Assembly (NCBI GenBank): GCA_016185345.1
Contig: JACPNS010000014.1
Location: 1 to 64,000, forward strand
Direction of reading: 5' to 3'
Origin: Solirubrobacterales bacterium
GTDB lineage: Bacteria > Actinomycetota > Thermoleophilia > Solirubrobacterales > JACPNS01
Length of the DNA stretch: 64,000 bases
Below are positions 44,448 to 50,200 of the stretch, piece after piece (within the stretch, counting starts at the first letter, position 1; each line of letters begins with the position of its first letter). Both the position numbers and the translations under genes were made by a program. The notes under the pieces are model-generated. The model saw only the letters and a list, made by a program, of their open reading frames with translations. It had not been told where the DNA came from and searched no databases.

Positions 44448-46232
44448 GTGGAGCACGCAGATTCAATTTTGATCGCCGGTGCTCTACTCGCGCTCGCCAT
44501 CGCAACCACGCTTGTTGCCCGTCGCGCGAGAGTTCCGGGACTCGTGATTTTCTTGGTGCTCGGCATCGTCGTCGGCCCATCTGGTCTCGAAGTCGTCGAC
44601 GGCGTCGGTCTCGAAATGGCGCAGACCGTCGGCGTCATAGCACTAGCGCTGATTCTCTTTGAGGGTGGTCTTGCCTCTGGCTGGAAAGAGATCCAGCCAG
44701 TCTTCGGCGTCAGCTTCTCGCTGGCGACGGTCGGCACCCTATTGACGGCGGTCATCACTGGCCTCGGCACCGCCTACTTCCTTGACTACTCGACCCTGCA
44801 GGCGATGTTGATCGGCGGCATCGTCGCCAGCACCGACGGCGCTGCAGTGTTCGCCCTGCTGCGCGGATCGACCTTGAAGAAACGACTCGCGCGCACGCTT
44901 GAAGCCGAAGCCGGCCTGAACGATCCCGTGGCGATCCTGCTCGTGATCGGGTTCATCGACTGGATCACGTTGCCGAGCTACGGCGTGCCCGACATGGTTC
45001 TCCTTTTCATCGGGGAGATGGCGATCGGCGCGATCGTCGGTCTGGCAATCGGCTTCATCGGTGTTCGTGGGATCCGCGCCGTCGGGAATGTCACCTCCGG
45101 GCTGTATCCGGTTGCCACAGTCGCAATCGCCGCCTCAGCGTTCGGGCTGGCGCAGGTGATCCACGGCTCTGGCTTCCTGGCGGTCTACATCGCGGGATTG
45201 ATTCTCGGAAGCGCGCGGCTACCGGCAAAGCGCGCGATCACGGACTTCCACGACGGCATCGCCTGGGTCAGCCAGATCGCGGTCTTTCTCGTCCTCGGCC
45301 TGTTGTTCTCCCCGAGTTCGATGAAGTCGCTCTGGGAAGAAGCGCTCGTGGTCACGCTGCTCCTGATGTTCGTTGCCCGTCCGGTCGCGGTCTACGTCGC
45401 GACGTTTTTCGCCAAGTTTGAGTTCCGTGAGGTGGCGCTCCTTCAGTGGGCGGGAATGCGTGGTGCCGTTCCAATCGTGCTTGCGACATTTCCGCTGGTC
45501 GACGGCATTGCCGACTCGAACGCGATCTACAACATCGTCTTCTTCGTCGTGCTCGCGTCGGCGGTCTTCCAGGGCACCACGTTCGAGTTCTTTGCCACTC
45601 GCCTGAAACTCACAACGACCCACCGCGCGGTTCAGCCTCCGGTGATCCAGGCCGGCAACATCCGAAAACTCGGCGCGGAATTCTTTGAGTTCCCGATCCG
45701 AAAGGGCGATGCGATTGCGGGCCACGTCGTGCGAGAACTGCAGTTGCCCCGCGAGGCGCTCGTCAGCGTGATCGTGCGCGGTGACGAGGCGCTGCTTCCT
45801 CGTGGGTCAACCGAGCTTGAGGTCGGGGACCGGCTGCACATCTTGGTTCGCGGCTACCTGGTCAAACGAATCGAGGAACTCTTCGAACTCTGGCGAGAAG
45901 GTCCGATCGGCGAAGTTGAGCGCGAGTACGCGAGGCCGCTCGCGGGCCGTCCGGCGATTTTCTCGGTCAAGCCATGGGAGGCCGACGCCGGAGACCAGGG
46001 TGATCCTCAGGAGATCGGCGGCAGGGCCGTGGTGCGGCGCGTGCGAATTCGTCACGACCAACCGGGCGCGCTCGTCGTGCTTGAGGATGGCCGGTTTGCC
46101 GTGAGCAGTAGCGGACTCGTTGCTGCTGGGAGTCCGCCGCAGATCCGCGCCTTTGCCGTGCGCAGAATCGATCGCTCCCAGACTCGCTCTGAGCGGGCCT
46201 GGTGGCAGGAAGTCGCCGGAGCGGTCGCCTAG
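44448..46232 (+). CDS. Potassium/sodium-proton antiporter, CPA1 NhaP2-type
   Basis: 594 residues. The membrane domain of about 12 helices includes LFEGGLASG, GGIVASTDGAAVFALLR and EAEAGLNDPVAILLV, where the ND pair is typical of electroneutral CPA1 exchangers. A cytoplasmic TrkA-C-type domain (about 405-475) follows, as in NhaP2/CvrA K+/H+ antiporters, and then a further soluble tail of about 100 residues. GTG start at 44448. Confidence 0.88.
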   Translation: MEHADSILIAGALLALAIATTLVARRARVPGLVIFLVLGIVVGPSGLEVVDGVGLEMAQTVGVIALALILFEGGLASGWKEIQPVFGVSFSLATVGTLLTAVITGLGTAYFLDYSTLQAMLIGGIVASTDGAAVFALLRGSTLKKRLARTLEAEAGLNDPVAILLVIGFIDWITLPSYGVPDMVLLFIGEMAIGAIVGLAIGFIGVRGIRAVGNVTSGLYPVATVAIAASAFGLAQVIHGSGFLAVYIAGLILGSARLPAKRAITDFHDGIAWVSQIAVFLVLGLLFSPSSMKSLWEEALVVTLLLMFVARPVAVYVATFFAKFEFREVALLQWAGMRGAVPIVLATFPLVDGIADSNAIYNIVFFVVLASAVFQGTTFEFFATRLKLTTTHRAVQPPVIQAGNIRKLGAEFFEFPIRKGDAIAGHVVRELQLPREALVSVIVRGDEALLPRGSTELEVGDRLHILVRGYLVKRIEELFELWREGPIGEVEREYARPLAGRPAIFSVKPWEADAGDQGDPQEIGGRAVVRRVRIRHDQPGALVVLEDGRFAVSSSGLVAAGSPPQIRAFAVRRIDRSQTRSERAWWQEVAGAVA

Positions 46233-47140
46233 CGGGTCTTGCTGGTCTCGTTGGTCTCGCGCTCGCGCGGCGGTACGTGCCCGACCGTGTCGAGGTCGCG
46301 CGGCGTCTCGCGATGCTTCCCGAAGAAGTTGATCAGGTTGCGGTCCTTGCGGAAGACGCGGTAGGGCGTCGACTTCAGGTAGGTGCGTGCGACGAGATTG
46401 ACCTGCGTCTGAATGAACGCCGGAGGCGGCTCAACACCCATCACCTCGCGAAGCTTCGGGTCAAGCAGGCCAGAGAGCGATTGGCGCGCGAGCCACTCTC
46501 GGTTGGGCACCCAGGATGGGTACCAGCGGAGCCAGTCCTCGACCAACCCTTCGTAACAGCCGCGACCGTCGACCGTGTTGGCGTAGGTGGAATCCTCGTA
46601 GTCCAGCATCCAATCGAGAAATCCATTCCGCGTCGGCGCGGGCATTTCCAGGCCCATGTCTCGAGCGATCCCGCACCAGAAGTTCCACCGCGCCTCGCGA
46701 TCAACGGCGCTGAACGGATTGACGCCGAACTGCAATGCGAGCCGGTCGGGCTCGAGCATCACGGTGGCCAGCGTGTAGAGCTTCAGCTCATCGCTGATCA
46801 GGAAGCGGCTGTGGATCTCTTCCATGCGCTGGACTGCCGCGCGGCCCTCCTCTGACTTGTAGCCACGGCGGTAGAACTCAGTGAAGAAGATGATCGTGTC
46901 GTTGTTGCGCCTGCGCGGGTTGGTGGCGATGTCGCCGTTGCCTGAGCGATAGAGCACTTTTGCGATCGCCGGTACTGCCGCCTGGCGAGCAAAGGTGACC
47001 AGGTAGATCGAGTGTGCGAAGTAGGCGTCGGCAAACAAGACGTTCGAGACCTCTGCGGTGATCTCTTCGTCGTCGGCGACGGGGTCCAGCGAGTCGACGT
47101 AGCTGCGCAGCGCGCGGCCGGTTGTCCAGTTGTCGAACAC
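46229..47140 (-). CDS. Oxygenase MpaB / DUF2236 family protein
   Basis: 303 residues, all-helical. Segments such as ADAYFAHSIYLVTFARQAAVPAI, RNNDTIIFFTEFYRRG and NPFSAVDREARW fit the DUF2236/MpaB (latex-clearing-protein-like) family of haem or metal oxygenases. Substrate unknown. It ends convergently with the antiporter (4-base overlap). Two palindromes lie 24-68 bases upstream of its start. Confidence 0.75.
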   Translation of the reverse strand: MFDNWTTGRALRSYVDSLDPVADDEEITAEVSNVLFADAYFAHSIYLVTFARQAAVPAIAKVLYRSGNGDIATNPRRRNNDTIIFFTEFYRRGYKSEEGRAAVQRMEEIHSRFLISDELKLYTLATVMLEPDRLALQFGVNPFSAVDREARWNFWCGIARDMGLEMPAPTRNGFLDWMLDYEDSTYANTVDGRGCYEGLVEDWLRWYPSWVPNREWLARQSLSGLLDPKLREVMGVEPPPAFIQTQVNLVARTYLKSTPYRVFRKDRNLINFFGKHRETPRDLDTVGHVPPRERETNETSKTR

Positions 47141-47163
47141 TCGGACTCAACAGTAACAATCGA

Positions 47164-47208
47164 ACTGGCTAGTCAGCCAGTGAATGAGTTGGCTTGTCGA
47201 CAAGCCAA
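47164..47208. promoter_or_regulatory. Twin palindromes upstream of the MpaB-family gene
   Basis: ACTGGCT-AGTC-AGCCAGT (47164-47181) and the perfect 20-bp palindrome TTGGCTTGTCGACAAGCCAA (47189-47208) share TGGCT/AGCCA arms. They lie 24 and 49 bases before the start of the minus-strand MpaB gene, suggesting operators for a dimeric (TetR-like) repressor. No such regulator gene is adjacent. Confidence 0.55.
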
Positions 47209-47221
47209 ATTCGGCAGGCTT

Positions 47222-47335
47222 CTAAGAAGGGTCTGCGAGCGCCTTCAGCACAAGATCATCATGCTTCTTCGGCTGAACCTTCGGCAGGTACTCGGCGTTC
47301 TTCCCGCCGGGCGAGATGATGAACGTGCTGCGCTG
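47222..47335 (-). pseudogene. 3' remnant of a bcp-type peroxiredoxin gene
   Basis: The minus strand reads QRSTFIISPGGKNAEYLPK, then VQPKKHDDLVLKALADPS and stop TAG (47224-47222). The last 31 comparable residues match the intact Bcp at 49.7-50.2 kb at 22 positions by eye. The upstream part, including the active-site Cys, is missing; at about 47336 the sequence changes into a foreign methylase-like frame. This marks one edge of an accessory segment. Confidence 0.85.
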
Positions 47336-47338
47336 GAG

Positions 47339-47917
47339 ATTCGGGGCGGCCATGGGTCGCCGTCGCAGGATCAGCGCATCGGCACGGTTCCGTACATCAA
47401 GGTCTCTGATCTACGTGCCGGGATGATGAACATCAACCCGACCAACCGCATTCCTATTGAAGTCGCGCGGACATTTTGGAGAAGCGACCACTCCGGATTG
47501 CGGCCGTTCGTGCTCATCTGCCCTGAGCGAACTTCCAAAAACATCGGCGACTTCTGTGTCCTCATGCCTGGTCAAGAACAGGTCGTTTTGACCAAAGAGA
47601 TGATCGTCGTCCGAGCTGCTGAGAGTGCGCCCTTCGATCAGTTCTACTTGATGTGGGCGCTGACGCTGAGCATCGTGCGCGAGCAATGGAAGCGCGTGGT
47701 CTTCATGCAAACGAACCGCGAGGATGTTGGAAAGCGCTACAACGAGATCCGACTACCCGTACCCAAGTCGAATGACATTGCCACGGAAGTCTCGGAGTCA
47801 TTCCGGAAGTACTACTCGGAGGCTGCGAAGCTCCGCGAAGAGCTTGCGATCTATCTGGACGACGAGAAGGATCATCACTTCTTTATCTCCGGTGCCGAAC
47901 CGGAACTCGGCCCTTGA
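47339..47917 (+). pseudogene. 5'-truncated DNA methylase / HsdS-like specificity fragment
   Basis: From about 47339 the plus strand encodes GTVPYIKVSDLRAGMMNINP, SKNIGDFCVLMPGQEQVVLT and REDVGKRYNEIRLPVP, ending in DDEKDHHFFISG. The layout resembles a target-recognition domain at the C-terminus of N6-adenine DNA methylases or HsdS subunits (PYIKVSDL, then LPxP). No start codon, methylase catalytic motif or N-terminal part exists, because the frame runs straight into the antisense bcp remnant. It is about 190 codons long. Its composition is less GC-rich than the surroundings. Expression as a truncated protein is possible but unlikely. Confidence 0.6.
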
Positions 47918-47992: not shown

Positions 47993-48382
47993 TCAAATGC
48001 GCTTCTTAACGCTCTTCGAGGCTGCGTCGTAGGTATCTGGAGGAATAACCGAACCGTGAGAGGGGTCGGCGATGGTGGGAGTGTGATCGACGCCGAACCC
48101 GAGTTCTCGTGGGATCCTCGCTGCAAACTCAACCAGGCCACAGCCCTCGTGCAATTCCGGATCGAGCACAGTAAGGGGCTCGGCGGGATCGGGGATAAGT
48201 CGGCGGAGGTGAACGGAGATCGCTTGATCTTCGCCGGTCGGCTTGAAAGAGGCCGTCGATGGTCGGCGCTTTCCGTTGTCGGTGCTCGTCGTCATGTCCG
48301 GATTGTTTGGAATCCGGTGGAGAAGTGCGTCTTCGTCGGCGATTTCGACAACGCCGGGGTTCTCGCCCTCTACAGGAGACAA
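47993..48382 (-). CDS. Third gene of the TIGR04255 cassette, unknown
   Basis: 129 residues, soluble, no signal or membrane segment. Central stretch ADEDALLHRIPNNPDM and DQAISVHLRRLIPDP, then FGVDHTPTIADPSHGSVIPP. I do not recognise a named domain; the DPSHGSV and ISVHL motifs look like conserved elements. It starts at TTG 48382, 4 bases after the stop of the preceding gene, so it is probably translated from the same mRNA. Role unknown; inferred to act with the two upstream proteins. Confidence 0.6.
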   Translation of the reverse strand: MSPVEGENPGVVEIADEDALLHRIPNNPDMTTSTDNGKRRPSTASFKPTGEDQAISVHLRRLIPDPAEPLTVLDPELHEGCGLVEFAARIPRELGFGVDHTPTIADPSHGSVIPPDTYDAASKSVKKRI

Positions 48383-48386
48383 TCGC

Positions 48387-48863
48387 CTAGTCGAGCGAGA
48401 AATTTAGGCGGTCTAGGGCCATCTCAAGAACGATGAAGTCGGCACGTTGATCCCCGTCAAACCGCCGACCAGTCACGCGATCGTTACCGATGAAAACTGG
48501 AATGTTCGAATGCGGTTCGAACTCGATCTCAAGGTCGAATCTATTCTGGGACCATTCGAGCTGGATGCCACCATCGGGAACTGGGACGATATGAGGCTGG
48601 GGGAGGCCGCGCCGAAGAGCCTCAACCGCGAAGTCGTACGCGGCACGAGCGGAGCCGTGGTCGATTGGGGTGGCCTCGTAAGTGTCCCATCCAGGCTCTA
48701 AGTCAAGAAGTTGAGAAATCTTTTCGAGCAGCGCTTTCCTCGCGTTCCGAAACGAGATCTGATGCTCTTGTGGCTCCCGTGTCTCGTCGTTCACGATTAC
48801 GACTGGTCGTGCGGATGAAGTGACGTCGGCGGACCAGGCTGATGGCGCGAATGTCGTATTCAT
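48387..48863 (-). CDS. Second gene of the TIGR04255 cassette, unknown
   Basis: 158 residues, soluble. LLDLEPGWDTYEATPID and PHIVPVPDGGIQLEWSQ followed by FDLEIEFEPHS are the notable stretches; a WDxYxAxPI...P-x-PDGGIxLEW pattern is, as I recall, seen in other sporadic small proteins next to TIGR04255 genes. Its ATG overlaps the TIGR04255 gene stop (ATGA), so they are translationally coupled. Biochemical function unknown. Confidence 0.7.
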   Translation of the reverse strand: MNTTFAPSAWSADVTSSARPVVIVNDETREPQEHQISFRNARKALLEKISQLLDLEPGWDTYEATPIDHGSARAAYDFAVEALRRGLPQPHIVPVPDGGIQLEWSQNRFDLEIEFEPHSNIPVFIGNDRVTGRRFDGDQRADFIVLEMALDRLNFSLD

Positions 48864-49645
48864 CGAGTTCTCTCCCAGTCGGTTTGGACTTGATCGCGTG
48901 TGATCGCAACTAGACAATCAACGGCATTGTCATGTGCGTGTTTGAGCGCGGTTAGAAAGTCTCCTTCTTTGACAAGCCTACGACAATTGACCTGAAATGC
49001 GACACCCTTTTGGCCCTTCGGTCCAGGCTGATCCGTCGCTGTCACCTTGATTCGTCCAGCGAATTCCTCCGCCTCCAGTAGTTTGAAAGCGAAGTCACAA
49101 CGCATTCCCTCGACGCCATCGAAAGGTGGCTCACCAGCGGCGGGCTCGATCATCCGGAGTAGTCCGGGAACAGCGCTTGTCGAGCCGGGCTCTGTCTCCA
49201 TCCAGTTCGCATAAATCAGCTCGACCAAGTCCGCTGGATTCTCCTTCCCGCCAAAGGTGCAACTCGTGGCAGCATTCACCTGCTGAATCAGTTCTTCGAG
49301 CTTGGGCTTCACGTTGTCGTACGACGGCTTGTCGTCCAATCTACGTTCGTGAATCGCGAGCCGATCATGCTGAACCTGCGCTCCCCACCGGCCGTCTTCC
49401 GAGTCGAGCGTGAGTCGGGGTGGCGGAGAGCCGAAGAAGAGGCCACCGACTTCCGTTCCGACGTTGGATTGAGGCGCTTCTGTCATTCGTGGGATCGCGG
49501 GTCCGAGGTCGGCACTTTTCCAATCTCCCAACTCGCGGATGATTTGAACCAGCGACTCAGAACCGAATCCGAGCACGGGTGCGAATTGGACGGCCGCAGT
49601 GACCTCTTGGACGGGCGGCTTGTCAAATTTCGCAGTATCGGCCAT
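48860..49645 (-). CDS. TIGR04255 family protein
   Basis: About 261 residues. The N-terminal DKPPVQEVTAAVQFAP is the hallmark start of TIGR04255, a sporadically distributed family of unknown function. The middle has RLTLDSEDGRWGAQVQHDRL, typical of its beta-sheet region, and the C-terminus has LKHAHDNAVDCLVAITRD. No catalytic motif is evident. ATG at 49645 is preferred; a GTG seven codons upstream is possible. First gene of a three-gene minus-strand cassette. Confidence 0.8.
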   Translation of the reverse strand: MADTAKFDKPPVQEVTAAVQFAPVLGFGSESLVQIIRELGDWKSADLGPAIPRMTEAPQSNVGTEVGGLFFGSPPPRLTLDSEDGRWGAQVQHDRLAIHERRLDDKPSYDNVKPKLEELIQQVNAATSCTFGGKENPADLVELIYANWMETEPGSTSAVPGLLRMIEPAAGEPPFDGVEGMRCDFAFKLLEAEEFAGRIKVTATDQPGPKGQKGVAFQVNCRRLVKEGDFLTALKHAHDNAVDCLVAITRDQVQTDWERTR

Positions 49646-49735
49646 ATATGCCAGATCGACGCCCACGCTCGTAAACCTTAAACGCGCGTCGCGCGAAAAC
49701 TCTACCTGCGGGCTACGACGTGAGTGCCAGCGCCG

Positions 49736-50200
49736 CTAACCCGCGAGCGCCTGAAGCACGAGGTCATCGTGTTTCTTCGGCTGGACTTTTGGGAGAACCG
49801 CTTTGATCCTGTCGTCCGGCGCGATTATGAAAGTCGTGCGCTGTACCCCCCAATATGTCTTGCCGTACATCGACTTCTCGACCCACTGGCCGTACTTCTC
49901 GGCGACCTTGTGGTCGGGGTCGCCGACGAGCGTGAAGGGGAGCTTGTACTTCGCCTGGAACTTCTTCAGCGCCTCGGGCGCATCCGGCGAGACGCCAACG
50001 ATCACGGCGCCGGCCTTCTCGTATTCCTTGAAGCGATCGCGGATGCCGCAAGCCTGGGTCGTGCAGCCGGGCGTATCGGCGCGCGGATAGAAGTACAACA
50101 CGAGCGTCTTGCCCTTGAAGTCGCTGAGCTTGACGGTCTCGCCGTCCTGGTTCTTCAGCGTGAAGGCGGGGGCTTTTGATCCTGGCTGCGGGGCTGACAT
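49736..50200 (-). CDS. bcp: Thioredoxin-dependent thiol peroxidase (BCP/PrxQ)
   Basis: 154 residues. AhpC/TSA fold with the peroxidatic motif YPRADTPGCTTQACGIRD; the peroxidatic Cys and a second Cys five residues on fit the PrxQ/BCP arrangement. GVQRTTFIIAP and the C-terminal VQPKKHDDLVLQAL are shared with the remnant at 47.2 kb. It reduces organic and hydrogen peroxides. It forms the right edge of the accessory segment and precedes no partner gene. Confidence 0.95.
   Translation of the reverse strand: MSAPQPGSKAPAFTLKNQDGETVKLSDFKGKTLVLYFYPRADTPGCTTQACGIRDRFKEYEKAGAVIVGVSPDAPEALKKFQAKYKLPFTLVGDPDHKVAEKYGQWVEKSMYGKTYWGVQRTTFIIAPDDRIKAVLPKVQPKKHDDLVLQALAG

What the first reader, a model, noticed from the sequence alone, without database searches (positions are those of the whole stretch)
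47993..49645. Three-gene TIGR04255 cassette: candidate undescribed system
A TIGR04255 protein, a WDTYEA/PDGGIQLEW protein and a third small protein are translationally coupled (ATGA overlap, then a 4-base gap) in an accessory segment beside a methylase fragment. None has a known activity. Sporadic distribution, compact coupling and defence-like surroundings suggest an immunity or stress cassette.
Basis: partly seen in the sequence, partly recalled or inferred. Interest (0 to 1): 0.8.

Follow-up and report, generated by a model that had tools for sequence, protein, structure and literature searches.

The report
Mobile three-gene toxin-like cassette
Three tightly linked bacterial genes form a real, recurring mobile unit that looks like a defence or self-poisoning cassette: a shared first gene that elsewhere is paired with different toxin-like genes, and here a last gene predicted to fold like enzymes that use NAD; no function has been shown.

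Summary
A (TIGR04255-like, 48860-49645 -), B (48387-48863 -) and C (47993-48382 -) are coupled (ATGA, then a 4-nt gap). The same A-B-C order recurs in six other genomes of the phylum, three viral/prophage contigs and a Mycobacterium paragordonae plasmid, often beside integrases or a relaxase. It lies in a low-GC island bounded by a 101-nt duplication of the bcp 3' end. In a sister species the same site holds a restriction-modification-like insert; in another it is empty. Not wholly undescribed: B matches the C-terminal domain of PADLOC candidate PDC-M32A, and C relatives match PDC-M32B; here TIGR04255 replaces the M32A N-domain. New here: TIGR04255 is usually the constant first gene of coupled three-gene cassettes whose genes 2 and 3 are exchanged (HTH + 'SQTCD' protein; X + HEPN; X + HicA-like; B + C). 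A C homologue folds with high confidence (pLDDT 93), and its best PDB matches are KptA/Tpt1 ADP-ribosyltransferase-fold enzymes (weak E-values). Best reading: a tripartite toxin-antitoxin-like, probably abortive-infection, module with C as effector. Function is untested. The window's C looks slightly degraded (arginine to histidine, lost terminal strand).

The parts
48860..49645 (-). Gene A: divergent TIGR04255 family protein, 261 aa, ATG start (in-frame GTG at 49666 possible)
   Evidence: NCBIfam TIGR04255 28.6 bits (cut-off 30), model 1-251/252; AF2 model pLDDT 73, order beta-helix-three strands-helix, twice
48387..48863 (-). Gene B: WDxY / VPxxxGG(I/V)QxEW domain protein, 158 aa; ATGA overlap with A
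   Evidence: PADLOC PDC-M32A C-terminal domain, E 1.4e-10; profile found in 11 of 397 phylum genomes
47993..48382 (-). Gene C: predicted ADP-ribosyltransferase-fold protein, 129 aa, TTG start; near-invariant Arg is His22, terminal strand missing
   Evidence: C family profile E 3.3e-31; homologue model pLDDT 92.9 with KptA/Tpt1 as best PDB matches; residue comparison; read-through shows no homologous tail
47345..47836 (+). Remnant of a type I specificity / target-recognition domain gene (N-terminal part missing; frame stops at 47917)
   Evidence: PADLOC Specificity_I models, best E 6.2e-5, residues 119-269 of the ORF 47012-47917
47235..47335 (-). Left boundary: partial duplication of the 3' end of the peroxiredoxin (bcp) gene
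   Evidence: 101 nt, 72% identical to 49743-49843, blastn E 3.7e-12; translates to the bcp C-terminus in the same frame
49743..49843 (-). Right boundary: 3' end of the resident bcp gene (49736-50200 -)
   Evidence: Reference copy of the repeat

Best explanation
The cassette is one version of a modular, mobile, three-gene toxin-antitoxin-like system, most likely used as abortive infection or element-protection cargo. Gene 1 (A, TIGR04255) is the constant component. Genes 2 and 3 are an exchangeable pair, and gene 3 is the toxic effector. Here gene 3 (C) has an ADP-ribosyltransferase-like fold and would act on NAD+, either by hydrolysing it or by attaching ADP-ribose to RNA or protein. A and B would hold C inactive and release it when infection or competing DNA is sensed. 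Shown: the genes, coupling, recurrence, mobility, and homology of B (and of C's relatives) to PDC-M32. Predicted: C's fold; HEPN and HicA-like gene 3 elsewhere. Inferred only: toxicity, neutralisation by A/B, the trigger, and the phage phenotype. The window's own C may be impaired.
For: Recurrence: A-B-C in the same order in G025, G179, G168, G130, G264 and G337, in viral contigs L064, L069 and L074, and on a Mycobacterium paragordonae plasmid beside mobF and a type IV coupling gene. Decayed A followed by B and C in G056. C's profile hits 8 of 387 genomes and every C lies directly after a B. Modularity: most other TIGR04255 genes in the sample start a coupled cassette with a different gene pair; gene 3 is HEPN in L024 (PDB HEPN 9xbd E 3.3e-4) with its 49% identical relative in L006, and weakly HicA-like in L021 (Pfam E 0.045). 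C fold: pLDDT 92.9; nearly all top PDB matches are KptA/Tpt1, then AvrPphF; invariant S56 and H109, near-invariant R22. Defence and mobile context: integrases adjacent in four cassettes, a HigB-like toxin gene near L074's; the bcp-3'-end site holds a type II methylase insert in G400 and is empty in G398.
Against: No phenotype is known for any member. Foldseek E-values for C are weak (best 0.017, TM 0.47). C lacks the catalytic glutamate of classical ADP-ribosyltransferases, and the window's C has His where 12 of 13 have Arg and lacks the last strand. HEPN occurs in only two related cassettes and the HicA call is marginal; the commonest gene 3 ('QGD...SQTCD') has no known fold. B also occurs alone in many phage contigs, so B is not exclusively a defence part. 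A's fold is not settled.
Confidence: 0.5

Rival explanations
1. It is a variant of the candidate defence system PDC-M32 that acts without being a toxin-antitoxin system: B and C form a nucleic-acid or NAD-metabolite processing pair, and A and the M32A N-domain are interchangeable sensors that recruit it to invading DNA or RNA.
For: B is the C-terminal domain of PDC-M32A and C relatives match PDC-M32B; L056 and L085 show the fused form. KptA, the closest fold to C, repairs RNA ends using NAD+ (PMC9503650).
Against: Gene 3 in sister TIGR04255 cassettes is HEPN-like or HicA-like, which are toxin folds; C lacks KptA's N-terminal lobe.
Confidence: 0.25
2. It is a stabilisation (addiction) module of mobile elements with no dedicated anti-phage role.
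For: Adjacent integrases, phage structural genes and a plasmid relaxase; sporadic distribution.
Against: In the window it is on a small island without integrase, at a site that carries a restriction-modification-like insert in a sister species.
Confidence: 0.15
3. A, B and C are a housekeeping or stress-regulation operon unrelated to conflict.
For: No direct defence data; HTH proteins are partners in other TIGR04255 cassettes.
Against: Found in few genomes, absent by profile from the four other held genomes of the genus (a negative without internal control), decayed copies, mobile carriers, different GC.
Confidence: 0.07

Closest known systems
PDC-M32 (PADLOC phage defence candidate, genes M32A and M32B)
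   Same: B is homologous to the C-terminal about 110 residues of M32A; the C family includes M32B-like proteins directly downstream of B.
   Different: In the window B is a separate gene, the M32A N-terminal domain is absent, a TIGR04255 protein takes its place, and window C itself is below M32B detection.
TIGR04255 family (sporadTIGR04255)
   Same: Full-length alignment; first gene of a coupled three-gene cassette, as in most members examined.
   Different: Score just below the curated cut-off; paired with B + C rather than with the commoner HTH + 'SQTCD' pair.
KptA/Tpt1 and other ADP-ribosyltransferase-fold proteins
   Same: Predicted fold of a C homologue; conserved Arg on the first strand, Ser on a later strand.
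   Different: C is a single small domain with a conserved His instead of the usual Glu, no sequence match, and weak Foldseek E-values.
RES-Xre and DarTG type toxin-antitoxin systems
   Same: Small coupled modules whose toxin has an ADP-ribosyltransferase-like fold (established knowledge).
   Different: Three genes, no macro domain, no Xre antitoxin in this version, and no Pfam RES match in C.

Membership tests
TIGR04255 | Score over the curated 30-bit cut-off | tested here: not met
   28.6 bits, E 1.1e-6
TIGR04255 | Full-length alignment and homology to members above the cut-off | tested here: met
   Model 1-251/252; E 3.8e-10 to the A gene of L031, which is above the cut-off; iterated profile joins both groups
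PDC-M32 | M32A: N-terminal domain fused to the B domain | tested here: not met
   Only positions 258-332 of 375 match, in gene B; gene A has no PADLOC match
PDC-M32 | M32B gene directly downstream | tested here: inconclusive
   Window C gives no M32B match, but L056's downstream protein matches M32B (E 9.5e-8) and joins the C family
ADP-ribosyltransferase fold | Three-dimensional fold | tested here: inconclusive
   Homologue model pLDDT 92.9; best matches KptA/Tpt1, prob 1.00 and 0.95, but E 0.017 and 0.041
ADP-ribosyltransferase fold | Catalytic motif (R-S-E or H-Y-E, or KptA's R-H-R-R) | tested here: not met
   Family has R..S..H; window has H..S..H
Type II toxin-antitoxin / abortive infection | Toxicity of one gene, neutralised by the other(s); phage protection | not testable with these tools
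   Needs expression and phage challenge
Mobile or defence island | Boundaries, empty site and alternative cargo at the same site | tested here: met
   Repeat of the bcp 3' end, empty in G398 (93 bp), restriction-modification-like insert in G400

The most novel reading that the evidence does not exclude
TIGR04255 proteins are the shared regulatory or neutralising core of a large, so far unrecognised class of tripartite systems in which gene pairs 2+3 are swapped between unrelated effectors (HEPN, HicA-like, ADP-ribosyltransferase-fold, 'SQTCD' proteins), and the stand-alone B proteins of phages are stolen antitoxins used against the B-C version.
Probability: 0.3. Interest if true: 0.85.

Novelty: new variant of a known kind. 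Interest (0 to 1): 0.6.

Why it matters
TIGR04255 is a sporadic family for which I found no paper in the library. Seeing it as the constant first gene of cassettes with interchangeable toxin-like partners gives the family a testable role, and it links a computational defence candidate (PDC-M32) to an NAD-enzyme-like fold. If right, many 'hypothetical' gene triplets on phages, plasmids and islands become readable as one modular conflict system.

Tried and rejected
Pfam, NCBIfam and PDB sequence searches with A, B and C profiles gave nothing useful. The single genome-contig scan was lost to a pattern with one codon too few between VP and GG; its three hits (L060-L062) are at the level expected by chance and were ignored. 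A corrected pattern was used on viral contigs. A as a TBP-like saddle: the A model shows beta-helix-three strands-helix twice and viral matches include a B263R homologue and a TFIID-like protein, but TM is at most 0.54, no TBP appears among the listed PDB hits, and hhalign finds no internal repeat; kept only as a lead. Homology of the window's specificity fragment to the G400 methylase: none. Cassette in other members of the genus: none found by profile, a negative without internal control.

Full report
Observation. BLASTP finds the A gene of another A-B-C cassette (26% over 272 residues, E 3.8e-10), and an iterated profile joins this subgroup with ordinary TIGR04255 proteins. The neighbouring methylase fragment is the C-terminal, target-recognition part of a type I specificity-like gene.

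Recurrence. In about 397 genomes of the phylum, TIGR04255 occurs in 31 and B in 11, with 9 genomes shared (p about 2e-9; dropping one doubtful B leaves 8 of 10, p about 2e-8). Profiles built from the first loci confirmed A, B and C in the same order and strand in G025, G179, G168, G130 and G264 (G264 was not in the starting alignment). G337 carries a canonical TIGR04255 followed by B and C, and G056 an internally deleted A followed by B and C. The C profile hits 8 of 387 genomes, each time directly after a B. Viral contigs L064, L069 and L074 carry full cassettes, and a Mycobacterium paragordonae plasmid carries TIGR04255, B and C between mobF and a type IV coupling gene.

Mobility and site. 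Tyrosine integrases adjoin the cassette in L035, L036, L037 and L069; L102 places it before a phage tail gene, L074 near a HigB-like toxin gene, and L069 near a ParB/N6-N4 methylase gene. In the window the segment has GC 0.55-0.58 between flanks of 0.62-0.67 and is bounded by a 101-nt, 72% repeat that is a duplicated bcp 3' end (47235-47335 and 49743-49843). In sister species G400 the same place holds about 4.2 kb flanked by a 128-nt, 95% duplication of bcp's 3' end, with a type II methylase (PADLOC E 2.5e-106) and two further genes. In G398 only 93 bp separate bcp from the next gene. The bcp 3' end is therefore an insertion site that takes defence-type cargo.

Relation to PDC-M32. All seven B proteins tested match the C-terminal third of PADLOC's PDC-M32A. 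In L056 the fused M32A-like protein is followed by a protein that matches PDC-M32B (E 9.5e-8) and that the C profile also finds. The window cassette is thus a three-gene relative of PDC-M32 in which TIGR04255 stands in for the M32A N-terminal domain. PDC-M32 is only a candidate; the one paper found lists it in Sinorhizobium prophages (PMC12429752).

Modularity. Looking downstream of about 30 other TIGR04255 genes showed coupled second genes, most often at the ATGA offset, and in most loci a coupled third gene. The pairs differ: an HTH protein with a 'QGD...SQTCD' protein is commonest; L006 and L024 have a 174-186 aa protein with a HEPN protein (the L024 one matches PDB HEPN at E 3.3e-4; the two are 49% identical); L021 has a 143 aa protein with a 72 aa HicA-like protein (Pfam E 0.045); L029 has a DUF7689 protein third. 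The third slot is thus twice a known toxin-type fold (one of them a weak call), which is why C is proposed as the effector.

C. A homologue (L069) was folded with 13 sequences at pLDDT 92.9 and pTM 0.86. Foldseek against the PDB returns KptA/Tpt1 tRNA 2'-phosphotransferases in all of the first eight ranks and AvrPphF ninth, best E 0.017, probability 1.00, TM 0.47. This is consistent but below strict significance. The family keeps Arg on strand 1, Ser on a later strand and His in a PAH motif. KptA and RES belong to the NAD+-using ADP-ribosyltransferase superfamily (PMC9503650). In the window the near-invariant Arg is His22 and the reading frame ends before the last strand, with no homologous tail after the stop, so this copy may be weakened.

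A and B. The A model (pLDDT 73) shows the order beta-helix-three strands-helix twice. Weak structural matches include START/Bet v 1 proteins and viral TBP-like proteins, but none is good enough to claim. B has no structural match and was not folded. B also occurs alone as a small protein in many viral contigs, which allows the untested idea of phage-borne antitoxin mimics.

Verdict. A real, mobile, recurring three-gene cassette; probably a toxin-antitoxin-like or abortive-infection module; partly anticipated by PDC-M32. The new elements are the TIGR04255-first architecture with exchangeable toxin-like partners and the predicted ADP-ribosyltransferase-like fold of C. Function is inferred, not shown.

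Noticed in passing
L113 2386-6606 (G400, same genus): About 4.2 kb insert at the bcp 3' end flanked by a 128-nt, 95% duplication, with a type II DNA methylase, a 439 aa protein that looks PLD-nuclease-like by eye (no Pfam match) and a 319 aa protein with no Pfam match.
   Followed up: partly
L073, L080, L086, L088 and about 15 other viral contigs: The B domain occurs alone as a small protein (about 80-130 aa) in phage-like contigs, without A or C; possible anti-defence mimic.
   Followed up: partly
L004, L012, L013, L020, L025, L026, L028 (downstream of TIGR04255): Commonest TIGR04255 cassette: HTH protein then a protein with a conserved 'QGD...(S/T)QTCD' type motif; the gene-3 proteins tested have no Pfam, NCBIfam or PADLOC match.
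   Followed up: partly
L104 3944-5249 (Acetobacter persici plasmid pAC1084_1): Tandem duplicated B domain protein overlapping an SspB-annotated (ClpXP adaptor) gene.
   Followed up: no
L055 7031-8480 (G056): Decayed A (internal deletion joining its start to its end) followed by B and a C-like frame.
   Followed up: partly
window 46229-47140: MPAB/Lcp-type oxygenase family gene next to the island; found in 3 of the 4 other held genomes of the genus, in two pieces in G398.
   Followed up: no
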